A DNA stretch of 64,000 nucleotides from Pholiota molesta (lineage: Eukaryota > Basidiomycota > Agaricomycetes > Agaricales > Strophariaceae), in NCBI GenBank assembly GCA_014925825.1, contig JACGCK010000004.1, positions 992,001-1,056,000 on the forward strand, read 5' to 3'. The notes below the pieces were generated by a model. It did not search any database. It was not told the origin of the DNA and saw only the letters and a program-made list of their open reading frames with translations. Position 1 is the stretch's first letter. Every line of letters begins with the position of its first letter. A program made the translations under genes and the position numbers. Positions 13,249-47,540 of the stretch are shown here, one piece after another.

Positions 13249-13266
13249 CACCTTTGGCAGCAGTTG
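13249..13266 (+). repeat. Left terminal inverted repeat of the giant KDZ element
   Basis: CACCTTTGGCAGCAGTTG, preceded by the target duplication CCTTCGTG at 13241-13248. The other two KDZ-like elements in the window also begin CACCT, suggesting a shared terminal recognition sequence. Confidence 0.9.
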
Positions 13267-13276
13267 ATGGGGGCCT

Positions 13277-13313
13277 TAAGGTGGGGTTTAATGTGCAGAT
13301 TAATCCCACCTTA
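13277..13313. repeat. Subterminal imperfect palindrome
   Basis: TAAGGTGGGGTTTAAT pairs with ATTAATCCCACCTTA around a 6-base loop. A related AGGTGGGGATTAATGG occurs, inverted, at about 47500-47520 near the right end. These repeated GGTGGG/TTAAT motifs are plausible transposase-binding sites. Confidence 0.65.
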
Positions 13314-13573
13314 GAGCCATCTCCGCGATCGCCGGTGCATCTAAGAATAGAACGTGTGCCATCCATCCTCACCATCTCCTAGCGAGCATCCCCAGAGCAT
13401 CCCACCAACATCCTAGAGATCGTTGGTCATTGCCCGGCTTCCCCCGCTGCATCTGCTCACGCTCCTCCCATCCGTTTTTTGGCCCGCCATGACGCGCCCT
13501 CCTCCTCGTCCACGGCGGCTCGTGTCTCTCTCCTTTATATCGTTCTCAACTCTTCTCAGGCTACTCTACCACA

Positions 13574-16500
13574 ATGACCAGGAATCTGCCCGCCCCACTC
13601 TCAAGATATCGTGCCGGCCAAATCTCCGTCACCTCCGGCCTAGGGTCCCACTTTGTTAGCCCTCACAAGCGCCCTCACAGGTTCAATACGCAGAAAAAGG
13701 GGACCGTGGCCTTCATCGATCTCGACGCCAGACGACAGCGGCTTAGAAAAGAGTTAGACGCGCTTCTCGCACCAAAGGACACATCTTCGTCTGCATTGTC
13801 AAGCTCTGACGACCCCGCCGCCAGCATGGACATTGATCCCGACGACCAATGGGTCGATGAAGAACCCCTCCCTGCAATAATAACCCAGCCTCCCGACGAT
13901 CCCAGGCCGATAACGACACCCAACAAGACAAGGCGCATCGCGCCTGATCAGGCAGCCATTGACCTCTATGCCAAATGGCAGGCCCTAATCCCTTCGCTAA
14001 TCGAGCCACTTCTTGCCTATACATCGGATTCGATCGGGAAAGCTGCTCGGGCGGTCGCAGCAGATTTTGAGGGCTCATGCAAGGGTTCCATCTCCTCTTG
14101 CGAGAGGAAGGAGGCCGTCCTTCAATGCCTTTACTTTGACCGTACGTATTTGTAGTGCAATTTTCCTCCTTTTATTAAATTCTTTTGCAGATTTTGTAAC
14201 AGTTAAAGTCAAATACTGTCCATGTCAGCCGCTCGCCCACACCCTCGTATGCCACGGCCTTTTCCCGACCGCTCCAGATCAAATCCGGATGGCGATTTCG
14301 ATTGATTTGTTGGACTTCTACAGCGCCCTCTTCGAGCGCTCCTGTGACGCCGTTAACGCGATGGCTGCTGCCCTTAACACTTTCTACATTCGGCGTGGAT
14401 TCTTCCTTCTTAACGGCAAGGTAAGCCCAGATCCAACTTGGAGCAGCGTTAGCCTCTACTTATGACGCGATGCCAGGGAGAAAGGTTCAAGGAGCCATTT
14501 CGTCGTGGGCTGGGATATGCGGCGCAGTGGATGGACAGCCTCCGCGCCTTGGTAGAGAAGCACACCGAGTCTATACTAGAACAAGCCGATACGTTTTTGC
14601 AAGCACAGAACTCTCCCCCAGCTGCAAGGCCAACCCTTTCTTTCAACCCTGATGCCTCCAGACTCCCCTATCAGCCGCCGCCCTACGGATCTCCTCACCC
14701 GCCATCACCAGAGCTGCCCTCGCCTCCATCATCTCCACCATCCGGAATCCCCAAGCAGCGTCCATGCCCTTCATCACCTTCTGAAGAATCATTGCAACAA
14801 TCCAAGGCACCTTTGACGCGATCAGAGTGCGCGCGAAGGCTGCGGCAGCTATGCCCTGCCTGCTTTGGGGGCGGGAAACATGGACGGTCGCTGGAAGAGT
14901 ATGTGTGTCTGCCGATCTAATTTGCCACGATACTTATTCGTCGGTTTGCTAGTGGGGGAGATTTTCAAGTTGCAACGGATGGAAACTTCCACCATCGCCA
15001 TCTTGTCTCAGGAGGGCGGGGCGTTCCATTTCATGAACCGAGGCACATAATACCCAAGTCATTCGTTGATGGAATAGGCGAAATGATAAGCCAAGCCAGA
15101 AAATCGTCTCCGAAAAAACGAAACCCCAAGGTTCCTGATTCAGCAGTCGATGAATGCGAGAAGTCCCACGATGCCGCCGACGGGGACAAAAAAAATCCGT
15201 CTCTAGCGAAGGGCGCTACGACGACATGGGCTGGATGTCCCTGGTTTGCCGCCATGACATTCCCCTCTTCTTTGCGAACATTGATACCGCTGGCGAGCAG
15301 CAAAAATATTTGGTTGCCCTCATCATATGGCTCTTTGGACTGATACCACCCAATGCGAGCGTTACCGTGCTATATGATATTGGCTGCGTGCTCGATCGTA
15401 GTACGCAGATGGTTAGTTCTCTTTACTTGTTATATAAAATGTCTTCCTCAGCCGTTCTCATTTTAGTATGACATCCTGCCATTGCATATCCACCATCGTG
15501 TTCAATTCGTCACCACTGCAATGCATGCCTACGGCCATCAGTGGTCATGTCAACTGTTGTATAATCCTCGACTCCATCACGGATTGGGCTTAACCGACGG
15601 TGAGGGTGTTGAGCGGACGTGGTCGCGTTTGCGAAAACTAATCCCCCTCGTGAGGACTTCAGCAGTAAGTCCATCCATATACAATTTTGACAACTGCTCA
15701 CAATATTTCTCGAAGCGCACACGTCGGATTTGGTTGACAGACCGGCAACTTTCCTGGATTGCTGCTGATCTGCGGGATGACCTTGGCGATTGGCTCAAGC
15801 GCCGCCAGCGGCTGGGCGTTGAAGGGCATCGCGCAAAGGCAAAGGCGATCATAGACCAGTGCTCGATGCAAGGGTCTGGCCTGCGTGCCCAGTGGGATCT
15901 TCAAAAAGAGGCCCAGCTATCTATTAGAGCGCGTGAGGATATTCCGCACTCCTCAGACTGTCCAGTACTCACCGTCAATCTCAGACGCACCCTCAAGGCT
16001 AAAGAAAGAACTCGACACAATTTTGAGTCTACAAGGAGAGCTGGAAACCGTGGAGAAAGCAATCAATGCTGCAAAGCTCATGCTGGCAACGTCTGCAACA
16101 CCCGAAGAGTCGAAGACCATTTTGAAAGGACTTCTGGAGATGCATGCGACATTTACGGAAAAGGTAGAGACACTGTACGTTTCACTGAACATTCACGACT
16201 CCCACCCCGACCTCAAAGGAGCAAGCTTGGAGTTCGTACGAACTCTCTTGATGGCTCGCGATTTGAAGATGAACATTCGAAAGCGAGCGATTGGAAGTTT
16301 TTTTGAATGGGACCGGTTGGATCAAGCGATTGGAGGCCAGAACCAGGCGCTTGGTAAGTGGCAGTTCGCTATGCTTCGCTCAGAGACTCACAAAATTCCA
16401 GGAACCAAGCTTCATCAGCAGACACGAAAAGCGATCTCCAAGAGAGCGCCAGCCTTGCTGACCGCCATCAGGAAGTTCAACGCCTACTGCGCCAAGCTTG

Positions 16501-18137
16501 AAGATATATACGATCCATCCTGGAACATACCCCTTCTGCTCCCACTTCCTACCAAGTTAGCAGATCTTCGCGATCACTCAAGTCTTATGGAGGATGTGTG
16601 GATCACGCCATCGGAGAGCAAGCCCCAACCTTGGCTTGATGATCCCGACGTTCGATCAGGGATACGCGCAATGATCAAGCTTGATCGTTGCACGGAGGAG
16701 CAGCGTCGGCTGGGAGAAGAATCCGACAACCTTTGTTCATGGTTTCGAAGAGAGCTAGGCGCAGTTGAGCTGGCTATTAGGGCACCTACTTGTAAGTGTA
16801 GCATCTCCAGGAGATCCTCTATCGCACAATCCTGACAATCTTGCAGGCAGCGCATATGGCGTACAGCTTGGGCAATATCGCGACCATCTCCTGCATTTGA
16901 AGACCAGATGGGCGAGTTCTTTGGCCTCCACGATCCGATTCGACTCCCATGCCGCCGAAGCCATGCTGATTGCGTCGCAGTTAACAGGACATCCAGAACC
17001 GCCACCTCACAAGTGGATCTATATGAATGCGGTTGAAGATGGCGAGGACGTTGAAGCTCAGCATGGCCAAACTCGAAATGATGGCAGAGGGACGCCCTTA
17101 CCGCTGCATGCCTCACCGGTGCAAGAGGAGGACGAGGATGTCATTATCGTCTCGGAGATTCTCCAAGTCGAGAAGGATGAAGCCGAAGACACGTCGGCCA
17201 TTGGATATACTGAGGATGCAATGCGCCTTCAGTGGATGCCACCGGTGGGGTTGCTCCTGCCTTCTTGATAATCATTCTAAAAAAAATTGACGCCCACTTA
17301 GGACCTCCAAAAGGACGAGGGCTTGCTTCACTTCATCAACAGATGCAGGGCTCTGGGCGGCGACCAATGCCGCGGCAGACCTCAATCTAACGCCTATGGC
17401 ATTGGCGAGAACGAGCTACAGATACTAGCCACCAACAATGCACTGCTCAACGATGTTTGTATAAACGGCCTATCCACCCTCCTTCAAGAACTCTTTTCCA
17501 GGGATCCCCTGCACCGCACCTCTGCCAATCGATGTGCACTTTTCTCAACGTATGACCTTAACCGGATTCGCTACAAGGCCCCCGACATCGAACTCTGGAG
17601 AAGTACATATCGTCATGATTTCTGGACTAAAGACATATGGATCATTCCAATCCACCGGCGATCGGAATGTCACTGGGCGCTGGCCGTCGTTTATCTTCAA
17701 CAAAGGGAGGTGCACGTCTTTGACAGTCTCGCAGGGAAGGCGTCGTGTCGTCGAGACGACATTCAGGTAGAGCCTCAAACCTTTCAATCAATATCATACC
17801 TCTGACGCCCTTTTTCCAGAGCATATCGATCTTTGTCTCCAGATTAATCGAGTTGGCAATTCGCTCCGGATACTCAATGATGACGCCCACAACCGGCTGG
17901 GTTGCAAAGCCTGCCATCGTACGTAGCCTCTCAGCTCAACCTTTGGACCCGGTCTGAACACTTTGCCAGGTGAACCCCGTCCAGTCGAATGGCTATGACT
18001 GTGGATTGTGGGTTTTGGCGTGGATCGCTGCCATTTTAAGGGGTTATGGCTCTGTTGGGGATGCAGTTGATGAAACTGTGATGCTCGCTTGGCGGGATAT
18101 TTTGGGAAAGTTAATTTATGCAGTGTCCTCTAAGTAG
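13574..18137 (+). CDS. KDZ transposase with CxC1 cysteine cluster and C-terminal Ulp1-like protease
   Basis: Twelve exons: 13574-14141, 14191-14420, 14477-14898, 14953-15411, 15467-15664, 15716-15932, 15985-16353, 16402-16791, 16847-17244, 17302-17766, 17820-17918 and 17970-18137. They total 3,983 bases, one short of 1,328 codons. The frame breaks at an A8 run (15188-15195), and one extra A restores it. The N-terminal region has a CxC1-like cluster (KVKYCPCQPLAHTLVCHG ... FERSCDAVNAMA). The catalytic region has ATDGNFHHRHL, WMSLVCRHDIPLFF, YDIGC, and HAYGHQWSCQ ... GEGVERTWSRL, typical of KDZ transposases. The last ~280 residues are a C48/Ulp1 peptidase with His in ECHWALAVV, Asp in VHVFDSLAG, and Gln/Cys in VQSNGYDCGLW, so the catalytic set is complete. 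KDZ-Ulp1 pairing is known; here the exon chain suggests a fusion. The start at 13574 is the first ATG before the long acidic N-terminal region. Confidence 0.88.
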
Positions 18138-19132: not shown

Positions 19133-19765
19133 TTACATCGACGTTTCCTGCCTAGCCTTCTTGGGCTTTGGGCGTGGCTGCGGCCGGGTGGGTGAATCCT
19201 CGCAGCCCGAACAATCCCCATACTTTCTCTGTGGGCAGGGCTTGCAGTTAGGAAAGAGTCTAGGGCCAAATGGATGGCGCACATGCCTTATTAGGATCGA
19301 ATCCTTGACGCCGCTCTTGAACTGTCATGACTTTCCTTGGGCTTCGCGGGCAAGGTCCTTCCGGCAACAGCGACGCAGCCAAGTCAAGCGCGCCCTCGAT
19401 CCACTAATACAGGCATGATGGTTCAGACGGCCTATGTTATTCATGAAGGACATGGCGCGTACCGCTTTTTTTTGCACCCTGGCATCCTCCAGCGCTTCCT
19501 CGCTTCCGCCGTAATCCTGAAGCTTCAAACGCCAGCGAATAAACCAAAGATCAAATAAACGGCCAATAAACATTGGGCCATCCTTGCGGCCTTTTACAGC
19601 CCGATAGGATGGGGCGAGGTCCTTGATGAGCTCGACCTGCTCAGCCAACTCGGCCTGTGCAGCGAGTTCGATCTGCGCAGCGAGCTCCTCAGGGGATTTC
19701 AACTAAGGCGACTTCATCAGTTCATGCTCGGCATCAGGTGGTGGGCGGCGTACCATGAAGGCCAT
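19133..19765 (-). pseudogene. KDZ-element accessory gene, Cys-rich C-terminus, with internal stop
   Basis: Reading from ATG at 19765, MAFMVRRPPPDAEHELMKSP is followed by an in-frame TAG at about 19703-19705. The same frame then stays open through an Ala/Glu-rich helix (LAAQIELAAQAELAEQVELI) and a conserved-looking block (RKDGPMFIGRLFDLWFIRWR). A probable intron (donor at about 19417, acceptor near 19327) leads to a C-terminal segment with CKPCPQRKYGDCSGCEDS and a Pro/Lys-rich tail ending at 19133. The cysteine cluster suggests metal binding. I do not recognise the family. The internal stop points to a degraded gene, a missed intron, or a sequence error. It is convergent with the preceding accessory gene. 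Confidence 0.5.
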
Positions 19766-19924
19766 GGATGCAAAAGGGTGGGGGGGAAAGCTGGGGCAAA
19801 AGGTGAATGTTCGAAGCAGGCGGCGATTGTAGGCACAGTCAGGCTTTAAAGCAATATGGGTGGGTGCGCACGCGGAGTTGCTAGGCACGAAGCACAAGGC
19901 CTTCTTCTTGCAACTCCCATCAAG

Positions 19925-20383
19925 ATGGGACGCACCCCCCTGTACCGTAGTGCTGAGGAAAAGGTGGTCGCTAATAGGGAAAAAAGCAAAAGATACTATG
20001 AAAAGTAAGCCAAGTACTCACCAGACACATATATGTTCTAATTGCGGTGTCAGAAATAAGCGCTCCATCAACAAAAAACGAAGAAAGGGGTACGCGCGCC
20101 AGCACGCAGTAAAGGGGTAAGCAGAAGTGGAAAAATCTATCATTAGTGTGTAATCTTTTTGCAGGGAACCTGAGGCCGTACCTGCACGCAGCGGCACCCC
20201 AACCACTACTGCACCAACCGATCCTCTTGTCACCTGGATGGAGGGCGTCGAAAGAGTACATCGCGGCCTGGGCCGGGTTACCGGAGAGGTGCCACAAGAT
20301 TATGTCGAGCGAATCTGTGCAAGTTTCCTAGAAAATCGAGACAAGGATCGAATCTACGAAGAAGTTGTCAGAATCAGCAGATA
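19925..20383 (+). pseudogene. KDZ-element accessory gene, split by fold-back copy B (5' part)
   Basis: Exons are 19925-20004, 20054-20116 and 20165-20383. The frame continues after the fold-back element at 23568-23769. The protein starts MGRTPLYRSAEEKVVANREK and is strongly basic (INKKRRKGYARQHAVKG), fitting a DNA-binding or nuclear N-terminus. A region with DPLVTWMEGVERVHRGLGRV follows. The fold-back element inserted within the codons for ...RISRY, and removing it with one GCAGATA duplicate joins R-I-S-R-Y to R-N-S-I-Y in frame. Similar small 'LY.s.E.k..aNR.k' proteins recur beside basidiomycete KDZ transposases as I recall them. The function is unknown. Confidence 0.6.
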
Positions 20384-23300
20384 GAGTGGTGCCTACCACT
20401 TTTAATGATATGGACATGGTAATAGCCAGGAAGCCCGTTTTATATTTACCATGCTACTAATGAAATGAGATATGCCTGACAACTTAATGAAATCTTCTTA
20501 GAGTGCGATATCAATCTTTGCCACTAGATCTCAATACTTACTGCCAGGTATTTCATTCCTGCCATTGCTGGGATATCATATCTGTTATGGGGTATTTTAT
20601 TCCTGCCATAGCTGGGATATCATATTTGTCATGGGGTATTTCATTCCTGCTATAGCTGGGATATCATATCTATCATGGGGTATTTCATTCCTGCCACAGC
20701 AGGGATATCGTATCTATCATGGGGTATTTCATTTCTGCCAATGGGGTATTTCATTCCTGCCATAGCTAGGATATCATATCTGTCATGGGGTATTTCATTC
20801 TCTGCCATATATGCTTAAAAGGCTTCTATATTTAGAATTCACATCAGATTGGGTAATTAGATCAATCTGCTGATTGATCAGACACATGATAGATAAGATT
20901 TCCCAAAATAGCAATGTCTTATTAGGCATATGACCCTATTTGGGTGTGGGAACATCCCAAAATAGAATATATCCACTATCATTGGTACTGCATATTGCTG
21001 CCTGGGCGCTTCCCTTGAACGAGTATAGGACTATGTTATATCAGTAGATGCGTATTTTTAATACGAATCCAGCGCAAAAGGTTTCGTGATTTTATCTGCA
21101 CGCGTTCACGAGATATAAGCGAAATACTGGGTGCGCTTAATGAGCAAACACTGTAATTTGCATTTTCTTCTATAACCGGTGGGTCTATTCGTACGCTCTA
21201 AATTACATTATGTAGGTGTCATAAAGAGCTTTACAACGCGCCCTTGATCACGTATTTGCGTCAGGTATTAGCGCGGGAAATTGCGTGCGCTTATTTAGAA
21301 ACGCGCGCTTCTAGCACCCGCATTTCTCACGCTCTTTCCACGAAAACATACCGTAAAATACTACCTATATGTACCTTTCTACTGCATGTTATTTGGAATG
21401 ATTCGATGGAATGGTGCACCTGTATTCGCATTTTAATTGTTCTATATATACCATAGCAGGCAACGGATAAATTTGTGCAATTTTGTACAGTTCTACTCTC
21501 CTGATTTTTCTCAATTTAATGATATAGGTACTGTGGCAAGAAATGGGGTATAGGAGAGCGAAATAGATTGGGTGCTGGCATGGAAAATAGGCTGGATTGA
21601 TCGGAATTACCATATTTGGCTAGCCATCAGTGGCAGATCCCTCTGGACCCCCTCAAAAGTAGGCACCCATTTCTCCACCAATTCTCAACCAAATCACTTC
21701 AATTCTTTTGCAAATAGTATTTATTCAAGGATAGAATAATTTCCATTGAGTTAGATTCATCAATTTATCTCTTTGTGTGCATGTGTTTATTGATTTCGCT
21801 TTTTGGCCCAGGTGAGCAATATCTCTCTCTTGAAATATTGCATATTTGAACATGATTCCACTTGGAGAAGGAAGAGAAAAGTAAGTAGACCTTGGAATAT
21901 ATTTTTGCAGGGAGGTGGGGATATAAATCATTTCGCTTTTAAGATAGTCAGTTATGACTGTTACAGTTCTTGTAGCAATTGATACATGTCTCTATAACAT
22001 TTCTGTAATACCATTTCAAACCATGCTCATTGACCTTTCCAAACACATGTTCCTAGACCTAGTTACTTTTCTTCATCTGTTCCAAGTGGAATCACACTTA
22101 AATATACAGTATTTCAAAAGATGGATATTGCCCATCTGGGCCAAAAAGCGAAATCAGTGAATGCATACACATAAAGAAATAAATTTGTAAATATAACACG
22201 GTGGAAATTATTTATCTTTAAATAAATACTATTTGCAAAAGAATTGAAGTGATTTGGTTGAGAATTAGTGGAGAAATGGGTGCCTACTTTTGAAGGGGTC
22301 CAGAGGGACCTGCCACTGATGGCTAGCCAAATATGGTAATTCCGATCAATCCAGCCTATTTTCCATGCCAGCACCCAATCTATTCGCTCTCCTATACCCC
22401 ATTTCTTGCCACAGTACCTATATCATTAAATTGAGAAAATCAGGAGAGTAGAACTGTACAAAATTGCACAAATTTATCCGTTGCCTGCTATGGTATATAT
22501 AGAACAATTAAAATGCGAATACAGGTGCACCATTCCATCGAATCATTCCAAATAACATGCAGTAGAAAGGTACATATAGGTAGTATTTTACGGTATGTTT
22601 TCGTGGAAAGAGCGTGAGAAATGCGGGTGCTAGAAGCGCGCGTTTCTAAATAAGCGCACGCAATTTCCCGCGCTAATACCTGACGCAAATACGTGATCAA
22701 GGGCGCGTTGTAAAGCTCTTTATGACACCTACATAATGTAATTTAGAGCGTACGAATAGACCCACCGGTTATAGAAGAAAATGCAAATTACAGTGTTTGC
22801 TCATTAAGCGCACCCAGTATTTCGCTTATATCTCGTGAACGCGTGCAGATAAAATCACGAAACCTTTTGCGCTGGATTCGTATTAAAAATACGCATCTAC
22901 TGATATAACATAGTCCTATACTCGTTCAAGGGAAGCGCCCAGGCAGCAATATGCAGTACCAATGATAGTGGATATATTCTATTTTGGGATGTTCCCACAC
23001 CCAAATAGGGTCATATGCCTAATAAGACATTGCTATTTTGGGAAATCTTATCTATCATGTGTCTGATCAATCAGCAGATTGATCTAATTACCCAATCTGA
23101 TGTGAATTCTAAATATAGAAGCCTTTTAAGCATATATGGCAGAGAATGAAATACCCCATGACAGATATGATATCCTAGCTATGGCAGGAATGAAATACCC
23201 CATTGGCAGAAATGAAATACCCCATGATAGATACGATATCCCTGCTGTGGCAGGAATGAAATACCCCATGATAGATATGATATCCCAGCTATAGCAGGAA

Positions 23301-23560
23301 TGAAATACCCCATGACAAATATGATATCCCAGCTATGGCAGGAATAAAATACCCCATAACAGATATGATATCCCAGCAATGGCAGGAATGAAATACCTGG
23401 CAGTAAGTATTGAGATCTAGTGGCAAAGATTGATATCGCACTCTAAGAAGATTTCATTAAGTTGTCAGGCATATCTCATTTCATTAGTAGCATGGTAAAT
23501 ATAAAACGGGCTTCCTGGCTATTACCATGCCCATATCATTAAAAGTGGTAGGTACTAGTG
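20384..23560. mobile_element. Giant fold-back element, copy B (3,177 bp)
   Basis: Copy B is the reverse complement of copy A (6865-10044). The left end is GAGTGGTGCCTACCAC; the right end, read inward, is CACTAGTACCTACCAC. The 7-bp target duplication is GCAGATA (20377-20383 and 23561-23567). It shows the same near-identical outer arms, diverged central arms, 44-bp arrays and mirror-image short frames as copy A. It differs from copy A by only a few substitutions and single-base gaps (for example near 22382 and 22436). The insertion disrupts an accessory gene of the giant KDZ element, so it is younger than that element's arrival or travelled within it. Confidence 0.9.
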
Positions 23561-23567
23561 GCAGATA

Positions 23568-23769
23568 TCGGAACTCAATATACAGGTATCAAAACGAAGT
23601 TTATGCACTGGCAGGGGCAGGCCCAGAGCACGAAAGGGCGGCTGAGGTGGGCAAGGAGATCTGCATGGTATTGAGCTGGGTTGAAGAGATTCTGTGTTAT
23701 GCCATGGTAGATTTCAGTGAGGTTCAGGAACGCCACCTAGCTAGAGAGTTTATGTATCAAGCCAAGTAG
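23568..23769 (+). pseudogene. KDZ-element accessory gene, 3' part after fold-back copy B
   Basis: Continuation of the gene at 19925-20383. The frame reads ...RNSIYRYQNEVYALAGAG, then an acidic, helical tail ending HLAREFMYQAK and a stop at 23769. It has no recognisable domain. The open frame on both sides of the insertion indicates a recent disruption. Confidence 0.6.
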
Positions 23770-27372: not shown

Positions 27373-27404
27373 GGAGCCTCTGGGGGTGCAGTATTCGCGA
27401 TGGA

Positions 27405-28562: not shown

Positions 28563-28630
28563 GCGATGGATGGGCCAATCCGCCCTTTGGCCACCTGTAG
28601 ACGCTAGTATTATACATGAGCCCATGGTAG

Positions 28631-29166: not shown

Positions 29167-29253
29167 GTAGATAAAAACATGTTCAAAAGGTAACAAGACA
29201 GTGATCAAGGGAGATGTGCTTCAAGAGGAGGCTGGAGAAGGGCAATCTGAACC

Positions 29254-30740: not shown

Positions 30741-30764
30741 ATTGTTGTCACAATTGTTCACACA

Positions 30765-36455: not shown

Positions 36456-36483
36456 CATCACTTTCTTGCTGTCTTTAAGTCAT

Positions 36484-37019
36484 GTACATAATACTATCAA
36501 GCTACTGTTGAATTTGCGAAAGGCTTGAGTGAAAATTGAACAAGAGAGAGCTCACTGTTGGTGTTGATGGTGAGCAGACACTTAAAGGGCCTCTGGGGCC
36601 TTCAATAAAAATCATGGAGATCTGTTGGTCTATAATACTAGTCTATACATGAAGGGTAAGCTACTGTTAAAATTGCTAAGAAATCGGCCGGGGAATGAGT
36701 GCGGGAGGCATGCTCGTCGTCGACGGCGGCGAGCAGAGGTCACCGAGGATGGCGGCGGACGTTGCTGATGGGAATTGCCATAACGGGAGAAGATGGTTGA
36801 TGGGCGCGAGGGCCTTTGATGGGCCTTTGATGGACCTGACGACGCTGGGACAAACACCGGTGGCGGAGGACGACTAGTAACCGGTGAGGTGGGAATAAGG
36901 GATAGTTATTGGGTAGTTATTGCCCCTAGCGGGTGGATGTACGTCTTGGGTCTATTTAGAGACGAAGAGGAGCATCTTGTTCCCGTCTAATAAGACCAAA
37001 CAACAGGGTATGGCAGGTG
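36484..37019 (-). repeat. Right long terminal inverted repeat of second KDZ transposon
   Basis: Inverted counterpart of 28631-29166. It is followed directly by the CATGGTAG target duplicate at 37020-37027, which also forms part of the outer element's end. Confidence 0.88.
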
Positions 37020-37027
37020 CATGGTAG

Positions 37028-37440
37028 TTACCTAGTAGCAGTGATAAACCCTCACCGGTAGTTACCTAGAGGGGTCTTTGAGCCACGGGATTGGCTGGTG
37101 CTGTAGGGGGAGGTGGGAGGGGCTGTAGGTCACATGTGGGTGAGAGGGTGATGCCATATAGTGCCGAGGATGCCGTGGGGGGTGGCAGGGTGGGTACAGA
37201 TACATAGGGCGCTGTGGATGGGGCGGGGGTGGGGCGCGCGCTCGGGGCTGCAGCCTAATACACGTAAACAACACAGGATTTGATGCTCGGGGGGCCGCGT
37301 TCGCTGTAGGGCGGCGTCGGGGGCGTTTTGGAGCGGGAAAAAAAAGCGGGATGTATATAAATAATGTACGGACCTAATGGAACTGTTTCCGCGCGTCGGG
37401 GAGGGCGGGAAGGGGTGGATTCAGCAGGGGGCTTATGGAT
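37028..37440 (+). repeat. Inner part of the left inverted repeat of the long-IR element
   Basis: Matches the reverse complement of about 41290-41702, including AGTGATAAACCCTCACCGG near the outer edge and TGTATATAAATAAT further in. A more diverged direct copy of part of it lies at about 41090-41200. Confidence 0.75.
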
Positions 37441-37799
37441 GACGTTCCAAAATTAGACGGGCGGTTTCTAATTATAGGACATCGGCTATATTATCCGAGC
37501 GTCTATTAGCTTCGGGGGCCTATTTCTCTCGCTTTTCCTTCGTTTTCAGTGAATGCAAAAGATTTATTTTATTGAATTAGTCTACTGAACAATGTAATAG
37601 ATTAAATAAAGTAGAGAGATGAGGGAATGGAGGCAGGGACACGCAAAATGGCGGTCCCTGTTTCCCATTCCCCATCCCTCCCGCCGCGCCTCGCTTCCTC
37701 CGCCTCTCGTGGCACGGAATCACCTGCGCTTCGTGGCCGCTGGTTGTGCTGCCCGATTGGCGGGCTCTCACTTAACGCCTGGCTCCGTCCACTTGTAGC

Positions 37800-38480
37800 T
37801 CTGTCTGCCATGGGCCGCTGACTGTCGTTTGCCCTCCCTGGCTGTCCGTCGTGCCCGCTGGCTGCCGTTCGCCCTCGCTGACCGTCCGTCACGCTCGCTG
37901 GCCGCTCGTCGTGCCCGGTGGCCGCTGTTCGCGCTCGCTGGCTGGTCGTCGGGCACGCTGGCTGTCGTTCGCCCTCCCTGGCCGCTCGTCATGCACCCTG
38001 GCAGCTCATCGTGACCGCTGGCCGTCCGTCGGGCTCCCTGGCTGTCGATGTTCGCGCTCGCTGGCCATCCGTCGGGCTCGCTGCCTGTCGTTCGTCCGCT
38101 GGCCGGTGTGCGCCTTCGCTGGCCGTCCGTCGCCCTCGCTGACCCTCCGTCACGTTCGCTGGCCGCTCGTCGTGCCCGGTGGCCGGTATTCGCGCTCGCT
38201 GGCCATCCTTCGGGCTCGCTGGCTGTCGTTCGCCCTCCCTGGCTGTCCGCCGTGCCCGGTGGCCACTGTTCGCGCTCGCTGGCTGGTCGTCGGGCTCGCT
38301 GGCTGGTCATTGGGCTCGCTGGCTGGTCGTCCGGCACGCTGGCTGTCGTTCGCCCTCCCTAGCCGCTCGTCATGCCCCCTGGCAGCTCATCGTGGCCGTC
38401 GGGCTCCCTAGCTGTCGTTCGCCCTCCCTGGCCGCTCGTCGTGCCCCCTGGCCTTCCATCGTCCCCGCTGGCCGTCCGTC
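37800..38480. repeat. GC-rich degenerate minisatellite (GCTGGCTGTCGTTCGCCC type)
   Basis: Irregular tandem units of roughly 15 and 30 bases built from CGCTGGCCGTCCGTCG-like and CTGGCTGTCGTTCGCCCTCC-like words. Related words appear reverse-complemented (CAGCGACCAGCGA, CCAGCGAG) at about 40360-40440 and 40690-40880. Long frames here are repeat artefacts. Confidence 0.75.
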
Positions 38481-38814
38481 GTGTCGTCCTTGCTGGCCGG
38501 AGGGGCACCCGGCGGTTGTAGGGTAGCGTTGCGGACGGTGGTACGGTGGTGGTGACCGCCCGCGCGTTCGTCCGCGAAGGGAGGGCGAGAGGGCAGGGAG
38601 GCAGTGAGCGCCTCGCGGGTGCGCGAGCCCGCGATCTCGAGGCCGCGAGACTCCCTCCCGCTACCTACTCGTCCTGCGCGCCTGGACCCACCCGCCCCTC
38701 GTGCCCGTGCGCACCCGCTGCCCCTCGTTCGCAAACGCTGCCTCTCACCTCCGCCCGCCCCCCTCCTGCTCGCCAACCGCATCGACACCCTGACGCGTTT
38801 CTTCATCCTCCAGC

Positions 38815-39055
38815 TAAAGAGCCGGCCCACATCCCTCGATTGAGGGGAGGGGCGCACGGTGTGGTAGGGCGGTGGCGAGCGCCTTGTGCGCGGCTGCTTG
38901 CAGTAGTGATGTCCAACGCCGGCCCACATCCCTCGTTGGAGGGGAGGGGCACGCGGCGGAGCTGGCATACTGCAGTGGGTGGGGTGTTCGCGCATCCGCG
39001 GTATCAAGGAAGAGAGCCGGCCCACATCCCTCGTTGGAGGGGAGGGGCACACGGC
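38815..39055. repeat. Repeated GCCGGCCCACATCCCTCG motif, direct and inverted
   Basis: Three direct copies of a ~35-bp motif (GCCGGCCCACATCCCTCG plus TGGAGGGGAGGGGC) lie at about 38820, 38920 and 39018. Two or more inverted copies lie at about 40205-40240 and 40285-40322, and a weaker one near 40648. With the minisatellite this gives 37.8-39.1 kb and 40.05-40.9 kb an inverted arrangement. Confidence 0.75.
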
Positions 39056-39142
39056 TGTGCGGGTCGGAGAAGAGGGCAGGCGGTGGAGAGGGAAGGCGGT
39101 GGAGAGTGGAAGGCAGCGGAGGAGGATGGGGTGGTGGTTGAA

Positions 39143-39169
39143 GAGATCAACCATGTTCAACATGGTTGA
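39143..39169. repeat. 27-bp perfect palindrome
   Basis: Two 13-base arms starting GATCAACCATGTT around one central base. It lies at the border between GC-rich repeats and an AT-rich segment, which is where a nested element end might be. Confidence 0.8.
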
Positions 39170-39442
39170 TCGCGATGCCGGGGATTTCCGTGACGAACCC
39201 GATTGGCTCGGACATACGGCCCGGCATCTTCGAACTTGCTGGTCGTCGTCTACGGCGTCTCGGACAACATCAGATTGCAATATATGTGTAAAGTAACTAT
39301 CTAGAATTCATGTAGAATCAACTTAATGGTCTTTAAGATAGCTCCGGTCCATATATTTGAAGCTAAATGACTCAATACTTACATTGTTCAGTTTGAGACA
39401 AGATGAGTTTTAGAAATTCAACACATAGTTGAGCGATCTTTC

Positions 39443-39828
39443 GTAGATTCCATGTATGAGTTCATAAAATTTGATTTTCTGCCAGAAAACTATTGGAGAA
39501 CTGTTCTGAATATATTTGAGCTTTCATTCATACAATTTTTGGCTATGTCTCTAATGTAGATCTCTTATAAAAAATTAATCTTCATCCGAAAAGTTTCGGC
39601 GTCAATCCGAAAATCACCACGGGTACCGTAGATTCCGTGTATGAGTTCCTAAAATTCGTTTCTCTTGCAAAAAAAATTATTGGGAAGCATTCCTTACATT
39701 GCCTATCATTTATTTACAGAGTTTGTAGCCATATAACTAATCCAAATCTGTCTAAAAAGTTCAATCTTCATTCGAAGAGTTTCAGCGTCAATCCGAAAAT
39801 CACCACGCGTTCACGATTTTGCTTATTG
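39443..39828. repeat. Two diverged tandem copies of a ~186-bp unit
   Basis: Both copies begin GTAGATTCC(A/G)TGTATGAGTT and end with GGCGTCAATCCGAAAATCACC or its one-base variant. The AT-rich interior has drifted more. No coding potential. Confidence 0.65.
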
Positions 39829-39960
39829 CAAGCTCAATCTTTACCCAAATTTAACAAATCTTAAATATAATTGTATTCATGCTAAGGAACTATTGTTCCA
39901 CAGCTAAAAAACGCGCCATTAAGAGCTATAGATGTCGCAAACGGCGTCCTCGACGATGGC

Positions 39961-40042
39961 GAAACGACCGGCAATACATTCGCCGGTCGTTTCAGGCGGA
40001 GCTTGAAAGCTGAAATCAACCAAATCTTGGTTGATCTCAGCT
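39961..40042. repeat. Two adjacent strong hairpins
   Basis: GAAACGACCGGC (39961) pairs perfectly with GCCGGTCGTTTC (to 39993). Shortly after, AGCTGAAATCAACCAA pairs with TTGGTTGATCTCAGCT (about 40009-40042) with one mismatch. The ATCAACCA core is shared with the 27-bp palindrome at 39143, suggesting one family of structured ends. Confidence 0.7.
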
Positions 40043-41289
40043 TGCTCTCCTCACCACGCTCGCCGCCGCTGCCACCACCCCTCGACTACCCTCTCCCTTG
40101 CCAATCACCACCACCACCACCACCTCGCCGTGCGACCCTCCTCTCCAACGAGAGATGGGTTGGCTCTCTGCCTCGACGGCGTCCCCGCCTACCCTATGCT
40201 GTGTGCCCCTCCCCTCCAACGAGGGATGTGGGCCGGCTCGGTAGCTCGACACCCCCGCAGCGTGCCCCGACGACGCCCCCGCTGGCTCCCCTCCCCTCCA
40301 ACGAGGGATGTGGGCCGGCTTTGTAACTTGCCGCGGCCGAGCATACCGACGGACGGACGACCAGCGACCAGCGACCAGCAAGCACGGCGGCCAGCGAGTA
40401 GGAACGGCGCCAGCGAGGAGGCCAGCGGTCAGCGAGTGTGGGAAAGGGGGCGGGCGGGTGGACGTGAGAGGCCGCGGGTGCGAACGAGGGGCGAGTGGGT
40501 GCAGGCGCGCAGGGCGAGCGGGTAGGGGTGAGTCTCGTCCCCGCCGTTGCGCTGGCCGCCACCCCTCGACTACCCCTACCACCTCCTAACCACCACCAAC
40601 ACATCCTCCTCCTTGCAGATGTCGTGTGGCCCTCCTTGGGCCCTCCCATCCCTCGTTGGAGGGATGGTCTGGGGATGGTCTGGCTCTCCTACCAGCGAGG
40701 GTCACAGCCAGCGACGCGATGGCCAGCAAGGACGTCGGCGGCTAGCGACAGCACGACGAGCGACGACGACCACCAGTGAGGACAGCAAACACGAACGGCT
40801 GCCAGCAATGACGACGGACGGCCAACGAGGCCAGCACGACGCCGACCACCGAGGACAACAACGGCCCAAGCAAGCATGACGGCAGATGACGACGGCGGCG
40901 GCAGAGGTAGCGGCTGCCAGCGGATATAGGCAGGGCCATGCATGGGATACGGGCGCGAGCGAGGCGCGGCGAAGGGGGGAGGTCGGCAGGGGGTGGGGGA
41001 GCAGGGCGCAAGCAATTGCCCGCCCCCTCCACTCGCTCGCCCCAACGTATTGTATTGAACTTAGATAACATAATCTATACAATAAATTTTTTTCCCGCCC
41101 AAAAATCCGCCCGACGCCGCCCTGCAGCGAGCGCGGCACCCGAGCATCGCGCGCAGCGATGTTTGTATATGTTAGGCAGTGCCCCCCATGTCCAATAATC
41201 AGTGCGTCATCAGAAGCCAACGATTGATATGGATTAATTAAGTACGTCATCTGATGCCAATAATAGAATTGGTTTAATTGATCCCGAAC

Positions 41290-41702
41290 GTCATCCATAA
41301 GCCCCCCTCCGAATCCACCCCTTCCCGCCCTCCCCTAGGCGCGCAAACGGTGGCATTAGGTGCGTATATTATTTATATACATACCGCCTTTTTTTCCCGC
41401 TCAAAAACGCCCCCGATGCCGCCCTACAGCGAGCGCGGCCCCCCGAGCATCAAATCCGGCGTTGTTTACGTGTGTTAGGCTGCAGCCCCAAGCGCCCGCA
41501 CCCGCCCCGCCGCCATCCACAGCGCCCTACGTATCCGTACCCACCCCGCCACCCCCCACGGCATCCTCGGCACTATATGGCATCACCCGCTCACCCACAT
41601 GTGACCTACAGCCCCTCCCGCCTCCCCCTACAGCATCAGCCAATCCCATTGCTCAAAGACCCTCTAGGTAACTGCCGGTGAGGGTTTATCACTGCTACTA
41701 GG
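41290..41702 (-). repeat. Right inverted repeat of the long-IR element
   Basis: Reverse-complement partner of 37028-37440. The terminal part continues to 41744. Confidence 0.75.
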
Positions 41703-41751
41703 TAACTACCAGGGTTTCATATAGAAATCTAGCGTCTATGGCTGCTTTGGC

Positions 41752-42871
41752 ATTGGGTACTCTGTACAGTATAAATTTTGTTAGCCATCCATACAGTTAT
41801 GTGTGGATTTCCGGCTTACGCAATAGGAGCGGGCCCTACAACGGGCACACTCAAGGATCTTGTTGAGCACGACGTCGCATCCAGGGTTCCCGCAAGAAAC
41901 GACGAGCATCCTGTACGGATAGGATGCGCAGAGCTGGGGAAAACGGAGTGGAATTGTAGGAGAAGCTAAGGTTGTCAAAAGGCCGCCGAAAGAGCGCCAG
42001 CCCATATGAGCAATATTCGATACACGTAAAGGGGTAGAAACATTCACCTCGATTAATATCTGATTCTGCGGAGCAGTCTCAGAAGAAACGTCGTTCGAGT
42101 GCCTCGTTCAACAGTTTAATTGAAGGCACAGTTTAAATGAAGGCACCGGGGCTGGCTGCGCTCCTCTATGGTGTCTGCATAATGTACCAGCCCTCTAGAC
42201 TACTTAGTAGCCTTCCCGAGTGGATGAGCCAGTGCAACTTGACGTGTTTGTGGGAGGAGGGGGGCAGCGGAGGTGATGGAAAGAGTTTTCAGAGACGTGT
42301 CAGATGTGCAAGACACGCTACCGCCGCTACGGATTCTATCGCCGTGCTACCACCGCTACGGATTCTGGATTGCGGATTCCGGACTGACTTACAATCACAT
42401 GCAGATCTCTGTAGACAATACCGGAGCGCTGGAATTTTCGGATCTCCTCGGAAGTAAATGGCATCCCCAAATCCACGTGTCTCCCTCGGCCAGGGATGGT
42501 ATGTTTTCTTGAATCACCCTGAGATCGTAAACCTTCCGCCATCCCCAGCCAGGCCCAAATATTGTCCAAAAGGCATGCAGCCGCTATGGCCTAGTGAGTG
42601 CAGTTATTCCCCATTTTCTTGGTGACTGCTCAGTGCTCATGCATCATGGTTCAACGCAGGCAACAAGGTCCACAGCTCGAATTGACAGGGCTAATTCAAC
42701 ATCGATATCACGATAACCAGGCAACTAGGATAGAAGCAGGCAGATGGAGGATCCATGTCTGGTAGAGGTGGATCTATGGCGTAGTGGTGCGCAAATATTT
42801 TCATTATTCAATGGCGCCTTCAATGTTCAACCTTTCCTTGAGCCTACAATCTGCCCAGGTAACAGTGAGCG
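41752..42871. other. Spacer upstream of the proline-rich KDZ cargo gene
   Basis: About 1.1 kb that rejoins the body of the giant KDZ element. A triplicated CCGCTACGGATTCT word at about 42322-42365 is the only clear repeat. One frame at about 42360-42510 (WIADSGLTYNHMQISVDN) could be an exon of an unknown gene, but I cannot connect it to others. The rest shows nothing definite. Confidence 0.35.
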
Positions 42872-45800
42872 ATGTCCAGCTCTTCCACTGAACGCTCTGG
42901 CACTGCATCCTCCACCGACCAATATGATATGGCTCTCGAAGATGCGCCGCTCACTCAGGAGGAGGAGGCAGCTATATCACAAATCGAGAAGGGTGCCGTC
43001 CCTTCGCAGCCTCCACGAACATCACCCAGCAGCACGCCAGCATTGAAGAAACGCAAGCGCGGTCGTTCTGCGAGCCCCCATATCACCCCTTCACGCCTCC
43101 GCTCCGCTATGAAGCCCACCGCCCGCGCTTTGGATGCAGGGTTCAAGCCCAACACCTCCCATTCCTTCCGTCAAGAGCCATCCCTTGGCACCATTCCTGG
43201 CATTCCTGCAGATGTTGGCGCCATGGGTATTGACACCCAAACCCGACGCTCTGAATCTGCTGGCCCCTCGGGTGCATTAGGCCATCCCGGCACGATGGGA
43301 ATGGCTGCTGGTGATCGTAAGTATCCATCCTTTCGATCACATCTCCCCGCCCACTCACCACGACAATTCAGCACGACGCTCTCAATCTATTGGCCCTCCG
43401 CCGCCCCTACTTCAGCCGGGCGGATTTGGCCATCTTGGCACAATGGGCGATCTTTCGGCCCACTACCACCACTATCCCATGCCGCAGCAATACCCCGCAT
43501 ATCCTGGACAAGGCCAACCAAACCCACACGGCATGCCACCCCCATACTTCCAGCCTCCAAGCTCAGCATATGGGAGCGCCCCGCCACTGCAATTTTATAA
43601 CAATGCCCACCATCCCGCGATTCAATGCAAAACCGCTCACAAACGAGTCTGCCTATGAAGGCGCCAACGGCAGACATCTTCTCGCCTCAGTATGCCCCCG
43701 CAGATTTGCAACCGCCGCCACAGATCCCTGCACCCCTGCGCCTCTCAGCTCAGCCAACTACGTCCATATCTGCTTGCAGCGCAGCCCTTACCCGCGATTC
43801 GTCTGCAGCACGCAGCCCATCCCCCGCCAACACATCCGACCCTGCGGCTGCTGTGCCGCCCACCGTTAAGGCAGCGAAGCACATCCCTGAGCCTGCCAAG
43901 TCGTTAAGCGACTCCGCGCCTCCAAAAGCTGCCATCCCGCCCATCTCGGAGCAGCCTGCTACCCCCATGCCATCATCCATTCTGCGCAAATCCGACAACC
44001 CCGAGGATGAGGAGGCTGCTTTGGACCGCAAAAGGGCGGCAGCGCTGGAGGACTCGCCCACCGTCGGGCGGATGACCAATGCCGCTCGCGAAGCCCTGCG
44101 CAAGGGCTTCGGCGATCTTAACGCCTGCATCAACCGCATAAGTGCAGAAACGGGCCTGAAACCCGCCCAAATCGTTGAACGCTGGGATGTGGCCAAAACC
44201 CGCGTAGTCAGCACCTGGAACATATACCAAACCTTCTTCGAAGAGCGACGCGAGCAGGAGCTAGCTCGTCTTGATGCAGATGCTCGACCCCCGTGTAAGT
44301 AGTGTTTCGAAATTCGCGATATAAAATCCGCCACTAATCCTACCTTAGCGGGCGCCATACCCAGCAAAGCCACCATCTCCGCTTGCTACGATCGCTTCAA
44401 AGCAGCCAATGACGGCTACGATGACATCCTGCGGGCATATCATCGACTCCATCTCATGGAGGAGGACAAAGCCGAATTGTCCATGGCAAAACGAATCCAT
44501 GAATTCAAAAAGCATGGGGACAAACTGGATTCATTGGTGCGTATCCGAGATTCTAATCATTATTCCTACCTAATGACTCGTAGGTTCGACGCGCTTCTGG
44601 CCTTTATGGCTTTGAGACCGTCTGCATTGCTGTAGGCGGCGTTGTCAACCAAGATCAGGGCCTTGCTCGGGTCGTGTCGAGTGAAGCTACCGGTGATGTA
44701 CGCCTTTTAAATCATATGTTTAACTTCTGCTTATTGGCCGCCCAGTTCTTCACAGAACGCTTTCACATCTCCGATGGCACCGCACTCGGACAGCTAAAGG
44801 CCCACGTTTAGTAAGCTCCCTCAGGCCGACCTATCCCTACGCCGTGGGCTAACACAAATACCGCAGTGATCGCCTGTCGAAGCGCGTGGCGGCAGCCATC
44901 ACCGATGGCCTGGGGGATGACCCCTCTCCTGCGATAACTGTGAAGAAGGAGGCAGCCCTAGGCATAGTTCCAGGGGACGCTGTAGTGCCAGCAATCAGCG
45001 ATCTGAGAGACAGGTTCATCGCGCTCGCAGGTATGTCTAATTCTGCAGTTGCTGCAAAGTCATGCCTCTGATGTGATCCTTTAGCGCGCCACAAAATCAC
45101 GATTACAAAAGGCAACTCGCTTATCTGGAAAAGCCTTCCACAGGTTTTCGCAGACGCAGGCTATGTTATCCTAAACTGGCCTGAAGATGTGCCTTTTCCT
45201 TGCGACGATGTGGCCAAAAACACCTCAAAAGGAATTGCAGTCCTGAAGCTTCCCGCGCGCGCGCTTCTTTTTGCAGCATTCGACCACCCGACCCACCCTC
45301 TCTCCTTGGAAAAGCGGTATCACAGCTCAGGTATGGGTTAATGAACCATCACTACAGCCTTCAACTTATTTTCTTTAGGTGTACCCAAGGATCAGCCCAT
45401 CATTATAGGTGCCCCTCCAGATGCCAATTCTGCACATACACACGGCCGCCGCAAGTTTCTAGGCGCCCACCGTAATGAGGATCGCCAAGGCCCGGAGCGA
45501 CTAGTTCGAGCAGCACTTGTCGCAGCCGTTCAGAAACCGGCACTCCACGCATCGGCGAAGGGTTCGCCTGCCGGCGTCGGCTCGGAGGATGATGATGACG
45601 AGGAGTCCAAACCCAAAAAGCTGCACCGGCCATCGAAGAGGATCGCCACCGCAAAAAGCAAGGCCCAAGTCCAATTTGTAGAGCCAGATGGCATGGATGA
45701 GTCGGATACTCCATACCGCGCCTCGCAGGATGGATCGCCTCGATATTCTGGGGTGGATGATGACATGCCCCTGGCACGATCTCCTCACCAAACAAGGTCT

Positions 45801-47039
45801 AAGCGTCCGGCGAAGGGAAAAGCTGCTGGGAAAAAGCGAGGTACGTTGCTGCTGCGACGCTCCGTTCACAGAATCCAGCTCATTGTACTTCCCAATAGCA
45901 CCCTCGAAACCTGCCACAAAGCGTTCACGCGTGTCGTCAGACGAAGACGAGGAGTCTCAAAACTCCGAAGGTATGTGATGTTGTTGAATTAATTTATGCA
46001 ATAAAATTTTGACGCATGCTCAATAGCATCGGTTGTCGAGATCGAGGCCGACTCTCCTGAAAAGATATCGAAACCCGAGAAGAAACGCGGCGTCGAGCCA
46101 GCCGCGCGTATGAAGGCGCCGCCTGCAAAAACCGCAGGATCGTCATCAAAGCGGGATCTTAGCTTGACTGACAAAGTCGCTGACATTCTGTTCAGAGACG
46201 CACCTGTGGGCCAGCCGCTGACCGCCGCACGCCCAGCCTCTGTACGCGGAGACACGGCCCCACTGCCGCCACCAATGCCACCTGCGCCAGCCATCGCTCC
46301 ACCCGCACCACCTATCGCTAATCCTGCTCCGGCTGGCCCCGCCCCCCAAGCCTATCAGCCACCTCCTACCACTGCCCAGCCCCAGTTTTCGCATCCGCAG
46401 GCTCCAGATCGCATCGCTCCACCCGCGCCGCCTATCGCTAATCCTGCTCCGGCTGGCCCCGCCCTCCATGCCTATCAGCCGCCTCCTACCGCTGCCCAGC
46501 CCCAGTTCTCGCATCCGCAGGCTCCAGATCGTGTCGCTCCACCTGCGCCGCCTGTCCCTAATTCTGCTCCGGCTGGCCCCGCCCCCCATGCCTATCAGCC
46601 GCCTGCCCCCCATGCCTATCAGCCGCCTCCTACCACTGCCCAGCCCCAGTTCTCGCATCCGCAGGCTCCAGATCGTCAACAGATCTCACAGCCGCCAGCG
46701 CATGGGCAAGAGGCCTACTATTATCCCAGCACCTTCGCCGATTCATACAACGGCCATTATGCCTATGGCGAGCGCCATCCTGGCTGGAATCAGCCTCCTG
46801 GCCAAGGTCCGCAAGGCTGGTACGCGCAAGGCCCCGGCAACCCCTCTTTGCCCCCTGGCTCCAATCTGCAAACGTCCGGCCCCGGGCAGCTTGCTGGTCC
46901 AGGCTACTGGGGCCACCAAGGCCACCCCGTCTACAATCCGCAGCCATACGGCCACTATCCGCCTCCCAACGTGCACCCGCCGAGTCATACCTCTCAAGAC
47001 GATGCGCCGCGGGCATGCAGCGACGGTCCACCAGCGTAG
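42872..47039 (+). CDS. Large proline-rich KDZ cargo protein, unknown function, probable -1 frameshift
   Basis: Starts at ATG 42872 (MSSSSTERSGTASSTDQYDM). Exons include 42872-43316 and 43372-44294, then a chain with introns near 44300, 44536, 44700, 44812, 45030, 45332, 45840, 45972, ending at 47039. In exon 2 the frame shifts near 43630 (an AAAA run); one added base continues into MKAPTADIFSPQYAP. The middle part carries a conserved-looking region (EALRKGFGDLNACINRISAE, VVSTWNIYQTFFEERREQEL, GFETVCIAVGGVVNQDQGLA, FFTERFHISDGTALGQLKAH, KGNSLIWKSLPQVFADAGYV). A Ser/Lys-rich low-complexity segment with likely nuclear signals follows (KRSRVSSDEDEE). The C-terminus is Pro/Gln/Tyr-rich with ~40-residue tandem repeats. 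As I recall, similar proteins accompany basidiomycete KDZ/TET loci, with no known role. It lies just inside the right end of the giant element. Confidence 0.6.
46296..46675 (+). repeat. In-gene tandem repeat of ~120 bp (Pro-rich, 40 residues)
   Basis: Three full units begin (I/V)APPAPP(I/V) and end PQFSHPQAPDR, and a partial extra YQPP-APHAY segment sits inside the third. Nucleotide identity between units is high, so copy number is likely to vary between element copies. Confidence 0.8.
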
Positions 47040-47522
47040 ATTATAGGGCATTAGTGTGTTCAATCGCCACGTAGCCGTTTAGGCATCCTTTTGTTTTCGC
47101 TCCCATACCTTGTATTGCCGTGCATTGGTGTCATCATCATCTAGGACTTTGTTCTTGTCTTTTTCGAGTTTTCTTGTCACATAAACACCATTATCGTAGT
47201 CATTATGTTAATAAGATGAGATTGCCATTGTACTACTGCCAAATGCCACAGTATATTGAAATCTATACGATCTGAAGTGATAACATAAAGTCTGACAGTG
47301 GATTTAATAAAGATTTCGGAGAAACTCAGAGTGAGGGACTTGGTCACGGATTTGGCGATCCGACATCCATCCCTGATGATTGATAGGAGAGGGCAAGTGA
47401 TACGCCATCGTCAGGAGATGGCGAACGATCAGCTATAAAAGGATTTGGGTGAATAGAAGCCATGGGGATTTCACCCCTTAGGTGGTCCCTGGCAACCATT
47501 AATCCCCACCTACAGGTGCTGG
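47040..47522. other. Right subterminal region of the giant KDZ element
   Basis: Non-coding 3' flank of the proline-rich gene. Near the end it carries GGTGG/CCACC motifs in inverted arrangement (about 47478-47515) that mirror those at the left end. Nothing else definite. Confidence 0.5.
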
Positions 47523-47540
47523 CAACTGCTGCCAAAGGTG
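47523..47540 (-). repeat. Right terminal inverted repeat of the giant KDZ element
   Basis: CAACTGCTGCCAAAGGTG, the exact reverse complement of 13249-13266. It is followed by the duplicated target CCTTCGTG at 47541-47548. Confidence 0.9.

What the first reader, a model, noticed from the sequence alone, without database searches (positions are those of the whole stretch)
13249..47540. A fully bounded 34.3-kb KDZ transposon carrying a TET/JBP DNA-methylcytosine dioxygenase
Both ends are resolved to the base: an 18-bp perfect inverted repeat, an 8-bp duplication (CCTTCGTG), and restoration of the host frame when it is removed. It carries a transposase-protease fusion, a TET/JBP enzyme and at least four further genes. 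Fungal KDZ-TET links are established from comparative genomics. A giant, cargo-bearing unit with exact borders suggests that the TET enzyme and accessory genes move as one package, perhaps to erase host 5-methylcytosine marks.
Basis: partly seen in the sequence, partly recalled or inferred. Interest (0 to 1): 0.9.

Follow-up and report, generated by a model that had tools for sequence, protein, structure and literature searches.

The report
Mushroom transposon carrying a TET enzyme
A jumping gene in a mushroom carries its own DNA-methylation-eraser-like enzyme and several companion genes; about half of its apparent 34,000-letter size is other jumping genes that landed inside it later.

Summary
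The borders are real: an 18-bp perfect TIR (13249-13266/47523-47540), an 8-bp TSD, and a target frame that closes when the insert is skipped. In the genome, 12 of 12 facing TIR pairs have exact 8-bp TSDs. Thirteen of 13 other matches to the target gene read through the insertion point. The element encodes an intact-looking KDZ-Ulp1 transposase and a dioxygenase whose family folds like CcTet, NgTet1 and TET2. A second bounded copy (17,056 bp) has the same genes in the same order.

The 34-kb package is not supported: about 17.5 kb is later insertions (a hAT-like element, a second KDZ element, another repeat, a palindrome) that split two of its own genes. The mobile unit is about 16.8 kb.

TET-bearing fungal transposons are already published (Kojima 2025, PMC12730594). 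Apparently new: a dioxygenase type outside the published AG and PE residue patterns, with Asn where TET2 contacts 5mC; its presence on two deeply separated KDZ lineages; and KDZ-TET co-divergence within one genome. Demethylation is inferred, not shown. The genome is very probably Pholiota molesta.

The parts
13241..13248 (.). left copy of the 8-bp target site duplication, CCTTCGTG
13249..13266 (+). left terminal inverted repeat, 18 bp
   Evidence: genome copies
13574..18137 (+). KDZ transposase fused to an Ulp1-type (C48) protease domain, 11 exons, 1,353 aa, no internal stop
   Evidence: model; Pfam; homologues up to 69% identical
19145..19645 (-). remains or exons of a small conserved gene (about 160 aa in the C609 copy), no Pfam match
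   Evidence: exon structure in the window not resolved
19874..20381 (+). 5' pieces of a gene for a protein with a basic N-terminal region; interrupted by the palindromic insertion
   Evidence: no Pfam match
20389..23555 (.). nested palindromic insertion (1,120-bp arms, 100% complementary), absent from the C609 copy; no exact TSD found
23542..23766 (+). 3' piece of the interrupted basic-region gene
24435..26152 (-). TET/JBP-fold dioxygenase; exons 26152-25395, 25340-25030, 24976-24435; HRD, H and R catalytic residues in the last exon; start codon uncertain
27097..27402 (-). second exon of a MYND-finger gene, cut off from its first exon by the nested insertions
   Evidence: MYND match of the C609 copy
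27405..28562 (.). nested hAT-like non-autonomous element, ends TAGTGTTG..CAACACTA, TSD GCGATGGA at 27397-27404 and 28563-28570
28598..41738 (.). nested repeat 'iv', ends TAGACGCTAG..CTAGCGTCTA, itself interrupted by the second KDZ element; no TSD found; related sequence in C124
28631..37019 (+). nested second KDZ element, 8,389 bp, 533-bp TIRs, TSD CATGGTAG at 28623-28630 and 37020-37027; relative in C152
33854..35053 (+). KDZ transposase region of the nested second element; no TET domain found in it
41787..41900 (-). first exon (MYND finger) of the interrupted MYND gene
   Evidence: C609 copy
42872..47039 (+). gene G4, about 1,180 aa, largely low complexity with a conserved middle, no Pfam match; one exon near 44868-45030 only roughly placed
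47523..47540 (-). right terminal inverted repeat, 18 bp, exact
47541..47548 (.). right copy of the target site duplication
11818..13248 (+). 5' part of the interrupted target gene, a member of a multicopy family
47549..48025 (+). 3' part of the interrupted target gene

Best explanation
It is a multigene KDZ-superfamily cut-and-paste DNA transposon of about 16.8 kb that inserted into one member of a multicopy gene family, making an 8-bp TSD, and was later inflated to 34.3 kb by nested insertions. Shown: ends, TSD, other bounded copies, read-through target relatives, an open 11-exon KDZ-Ulp1 reading frame, the dioxygenase gene, a second bounded copy with the same genes in the same order, nested elements with their own ends. 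Inferred: the KDZ transposase binds the CACCT..AGGTG ends and moves everything between them; the Ulp1 domain may remove SUMO-like marks from host factors or the transposase; the TET/JBP-fold enzyme oxidises 5-methylcytosine on the element, or more broadly, and so counters methylation-based silencing; the roles of the MYND, basic-region and G4 proteins are unknown, regulation or DNA binding being my guess. Because nested insertions now split the MYND and basic-region genes, this copy can at most still supply transposase and dioxygenase.
Against: Pfam does not accept the dioxygenase as Tet_JBP (15.5 bits against 34.9); only 8 of 38 relatives match Tet_JBP at E<=0.01 and 7 of 38 match another 2OG family. 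No enzymatic or methylation data. CpG o/e is 0.87 in the core and 0.89 in C609, against 1.01-1.03 in the flanks and 0.97-1.13 in the ten short copies without TET, so there is no footprint of protection by TET. The empty sites are relatives of the target gene, not the empty allele of this locus. 15 of the 39 TIR matches are unpaired. Only two copies of this transposase lineage were found, so recent mobility of the full unit is not shown. A third copy (C321) keeps one TIR, G4 and TET but not this transposase.
Confidence: 0.88

Rival explanations
1. A true 34-kb giant element in which all internal genes are cargo mobilised as one functional package.
For: One outer TIR pair with a TSD encloses everything, so a new transposition could in principle carry the passengers too.
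Against: The collinear C609 copy lacks the two extra blocks. The blocks contain elements with their own TIRs and TSDs, and the nested KDZ element has a relative elsewhere (C152). The insertions break the MYND and basic-region genes.
Confidence: 0.05
2. The dioxygenase is not a DNA 5mC oxidase but another 2OG enzyme (for example acting on protein, RNA or thymine) that the transposon uses differently.
For: Weak Pfam score; 7 of 38 relatives match 2OG-FeII_Oxy_3; sequence identity in the fold match is only about 16%; the profile matched no TET chain of the PDB at E<=1.
Confidence: 0.2
3. TET is not a functional part of the element but one gene of a methylation-dense, repeat-rich region that hitchhikes.
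For: 22 of 45 loci of the family have no KDZ hit within 10 kb (both lists are lower bounds and many contigs are short).
Against: Low dN/dS, same order in two bounded copies, co-divergence with KDZ over pairs in this genome.
Confidence: 0.08
4. Assembly artefact joining unrelated repeats.
For: The palindrome and the 100%-identical 533-bp arms are hard to assemble.
Against: The outer ends are supported by 11 further bounded pairs and a collinear copy on another contig, and each of the two nested elements with found TSDs has an exact one.
Confidence: 0.03

Closest known systems
TET+ Kyakuja elements of mushrooms (Kojima 2025, PMC12730594; full-text parts 1-4 of 7, section 4.2 and figure legends seen)
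   Same: A KDZ-type DNA transposon of Agaricomycetes carrying a TET/JBP-fold dioxygenase; 5'-CA..TG-3' termini.
   Different: Described as having 7-bp TSDs and no TIRs; here an 8-bp TSD and an 18-bp TIR. Their AG-type enzyme is described with Gly/Ser and Asp at the CcTet 331 and 337 positions; here Asn and Cys at the same spacing from HxD.
Zisupton and Dileera elements (same paper)
   Same: 8-bp TSDs; TIRs for Zisupton.
   Different: No labelled reference sequences were available, so the transposase could not be assigned. TET types there are PU for Dileera, and AG or PE for Zisupton.
CcTet of Coprinopsis cinerea (PMC11040006, abstract and passages seen)
   Different: About 16% identity; CcTet has Gly331 and Asp337, which allow 6mA oxidation; this family has the TET2-like Asn at the Gly331 spacing.
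Human TET2 / Naegleria NgTet1
   Different: Far in sequence; not transposon genes in those hosts (recalled).
Agaricomycete CxC1-KDZ-Ulp1 proteins (573 proteins at E<=0.001 among 8,000 scored)
   Same: Same domain order; up to 69% identity (Hypholoma sublateritium).

Membership tests
KDZ transposon superfamily | KDZ transposase domain (PF18758) | tested here: met
   E=2.1e-36, 126.1 bits against 26.6
KDZ transposon superfamily | cysteine cluster (CxC) before the transposase domain | tested here: inconclusive
   CxC1 E=1e-5, 26.0 bits against a cut-off of 26.9; CxC2 18.5 against 27
TIR DNA transposon | terminal inverted repeats and a constant-length TSD in several insertions | tested here: met
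   18-bp TIR; exact 8-bp TSD in 12 of 12 facing pairs
TET+ Kyakuja (Kojima 2025) | 7-bp TSD and no TIR | tested here: not met
   8-bp TSD and 18-bp TIR (definition)
Zisupton or Dileera lineage | position in the KDZ transposase tree | not testable with these tools
   no labelled reference sequences; 8-bp TSD is compatible
TET/JBP dioxygenase | TET/JBP fold ranking above other 2OG enzymes | tested here: met
   homologue P0007, 57% identical to the window's catalytic exon: CcTet 21.5, NgTet1 19.1, TET2 17.6, next CMD1 13.6 and FTO 13.3
TET/JBP dioxygenase | HxD...H metal triad and the downstream Arg | tested here: met
   H413, D415, H466, R477 in the 540-aa model; H413 and H466 invariant, D415 and R477 at least 90% in 38 sequences
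TET/JBP dioxygenase | Pfam Tet_JBP gathering score | tested here: not met
   15.5 bits against 34.9
TET/JBP dioxygenase | oxidation of 5mC | not testable with these tools
   needs an enzyme assay
AG-type transposon TET (Kojima 2025) | Gly/Ser at HxD+5 and Asp at +11 (CcTet 331, 337; stated for the Kyakuja enzymes) | tested here: not met
   Asn at +5 and Cys at +11 in all 38 aligned relatives and in 20 of 21 genome loci; ungapped spacing assumed, no residue-level structural alignment was available
PE-type transposon TET (Kojima 2025) | HxE instead of HxD | tested here: not met
   HRD in the window; Asp at least 90% in 38 relatives
PU-type transposon TET (Kojima 2025) | residues conserved in the PU group | not tested
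   the residues are in a figure that is not held; PU is reported from Pucciniomycetes only

The most novel reading that the evidence does not exclude
The dioxygenase is a further class of transposon-borne TET, beside the published PU, AG and PE types: TET2-like at the 5mC-reading position and therefore predicted to be 5mC-selective rather than 5mC/6mA-bifunctional. It has passed between at least two deeply separated KDZ lineages, and in one of them, with TIRs and 8-bp TSDs, it forms part of a stable six-gene unit with a KDZ-Ulp1 transposase, a MYND protein and the G4 protein. Such units would each carry their own eraser against methylation silencing.
Probability: 0.45. Interest if true: 0.62.

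Novelty: new variant of a known kind. Interest (0 to 1): 0.5.

Why it matters
TET enzymes on transposons are a clean natural case of mobile DNA fighting methylation. That TET-bearing KDZ elements exist is known. What this locus adds is a defined six-gene unit with base-exact ends, two bounded large copies and ten bounded short copies without a transposase in one genome. That makes a direct test possible: compare 5mC and 5hmC on copies that have the enzyme and copies that lack it. It also points to a dioxygenase family, widespread in mushrooms and annotated mostly as hypothetical protein, that should act as a conventional 5mC oxidase.

Tried and rejected
A TET domain could not be found by Pfam in translated single frames or by the PF12851 and PF20515 genome scans in the window; it showed only after splicing and by fold. 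Sequence searches of the PDB gave no TET chain at the thresholds used (E<=1; E<=5). As a caution, a genome locus that does match Tet_JBP also found none (E<=1), so this failure says little about the type.

The first joint model of the MYND and TET genes ran two genes together and was dropped. The G4 model used for dN/dS was out of frame (9 and 10 stops), and its values were dropped; the MYND exon gave an infinite dS and no ratio. CpG depletion as a footprint of methylation: none worth the name. NCBIfam gave nothing for four proteins.

The right end of the third copy (C321) was not found: no TIR within 4 mismatches on that side, the best match having 5. TSDs of the other TET-bearing KDZ lineage could not be measured: the two copies compared (C586, C344) are still 99.5% alike over the whole 3.4 kb fetched, so no border was reached. 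A Starship-type origin was considered from memory and set aside because a KDZ transposase with TIRs and TSDs explains the ends; it was not tested by a search of its own.

Kojima's supplement (family list) could not be read, so it may already name related families. Iyer 2014 and Chavez 2014 are not held; what I say of them comes from papers that cite them.
Full report
Borders. The 18-bp inverted repeat and the 8-bp duplication are exact. Joining the flanks with one duplication kept restores one open frame through DPAFV-LVQCDKN. The target gene belongs to a multicopy family: of 15 matches in the genome, 2 are the two halves in the window and the other 13 all run through the insertion point without a stop, 7 at 49-75% identity and 6 at 28-31%. 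At DNA level 5 of 5 fetched relatives have no gap at the insertion point. These are relatives, not the empty allele. Pfam gave nothing significant for this target protein.

Other copies. The TIR has 39 matches at up to 2 mismatches, against 2 for the reversed control. Twenty-four of them form 12 facing pairs: ten short ones of 2.7-5.1 kb, the window element, and a 17,056-bp one at C609:48308-65363. All 12 pairs have an exact 8-bp TSD. Fifteen matches stay unpaired. The short copies resemble one another (best stretches 76-98% identical), have no ORF above 277 aa, and no KDZ hit lies in them; I read them as non-autonomous copies.

The large copy. C609 is collinear with the window element from the transposase to the G4 gene. 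Two blocks occur only in the window: about 20389-23555 and 27405-41738. The first is a palindrome with 1,120-bp perfect arms. The second begins with a 1,158-bp hAT-like element with TSD GCGATGGA, then, 35 bp further, a repeat of about 4.7 kb interrupted by an 8,389-bp KDZ element with 533-bp TIRs and TSD CATGGTAG. That KDZ element has an 83% relative at C152:31212-39442. Without these blocks the window element is 16,791 bp, close to C609. The first block lies within the basic-region gene; the second separates the first exon of the MYND gene from its second.

Genes. G1: KDZ plus Ulp1 protease, 1,353 aa, no stop. A small gene and a basic-region gene follow, both without Pfam match. The dioxygenase gene is next; its start is uncertain. 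The MYND gene is recognised from C609 (E=1.4e-7). G4 (about 1,180 aa) has no Pfam match (part of the protein) and only 5 homologues at E<=0.001 among 8,000 scored candidates, from Pholiota, Hypholoma and Gymnopilus.

Host. Contig C609 is 194,341 bases long, as is the contig of two Pholiota molesta proteins (P0122, P0241); C555 is 1,074,669 long, as is that of P0052, also P. molesta. I conclude P. molesta. By the same reasoning the transposase and G4 share one contig in Hypholoma sublateritium (83,304) and Pholiota conissans (123,566). Whether TET lies there too is unknown.

Association. Merging hits by hand, I count 70 KDZ loci (from 128 matches) and 45 loci of this dioxygenase family (from 50 matches); 23 of 45 lie within 10 kb of a KDZ hit, with about 2% expected from the share of the genome near KDZ hits. 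Of the 23, I compared 21 pairs (left out: the second C163 locus and the C321 locus whose partner is ambiguous). Protein distances of transposase and dioxygenase correlate: r=0.72 over 21, 0.59 over 14 after collapsing near-identical ones, 0.68 over 12 without the window and C609; p=0.0001 each. Two pairs do not fit neatly: C175 has a degenerate dioxygenase, and the window/C609 transposases stand 66-78% apart from all others while their dioxygenases do not (47-60%, leaving C175 out). Quick trees agree: the transposase tree separates the window lineage from the other TET-linked KDZ of this genome by long, 98%-supported branches, whereas the deepest split in the dioxygenase tree is short and weak (44%). 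The simplest reading is exchange of the dioxygenase between KDZ lineages; unequal rates remain possible.

Selection. Between the window and C609, dN/dS is 0.06 for conserved blocks of the transposase and 0.12 for the catalytic exon, with dS above 2, so the values are only a sign of constraint.

Mechanism. Cut-and-paste transposition from the TIRs with an 8-bp stagger follows from the anatomy. Removal of 5mC is the published hypothesis for such enzymes (Kojima, section 4.2) and fits the fold. The DNA itself gives no support: CpG o/e is 0.87 and 0.89 in the two TET-bearing copies, 1.01-1.03 in the flanks, 0.97-1.13 in the ten short copies.

What is known. Complete TET-bearing fungal DNA transposons, including KDZ ones, were described in 2025 (PMC12730594), so the main idea is not new. 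My searches of the held library listed no paper describing this six-gene unit or this residue type; I read only the papers named, and Kojima's supplementary family list could not be opened.

Noticed in passing
window 28631-37019: A second complete KDZ element nested inside, with 533-bp perfect TIRs and an 8-bp TSD, an 83% relative at C152:31212-39442 and short end-matches elsewhere. Perfect long arms suggest a recent insertion.
   Followed up: partly
window 20389-23555: A 3.2-kb near-perfect palindrome without a recognisable TSD; a fold-back element or an assembly effect.
   Followed up: partly
L052/L053 (C321:4900-24899): A third copy with one TIR, G4 and the dioxygenase closest to the window's (69%), but without this transposase lineage; another KDZ lies there instead.
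   Followed up: partly
window 11818-13248 and 47549-48025: The target gene is itself multicopy (13 other matches in the genome), without Pfam domains; possibly also a mobile element gene.
   Followed up: partly
C1:11550, C34:35000, C268:304883, C1:615047 (L044-L047): Other Tet_JBP-like loci with Asp instead of Asn at the +5 position, a different group from the window's dioxygenase.
   Followed up: no
window 51983-54184: A 734-aa ORF with the Zds C-terminal domain (PF08632, E=6.8e-28), an ordinary host gene flanking the element.
   Followed up: no
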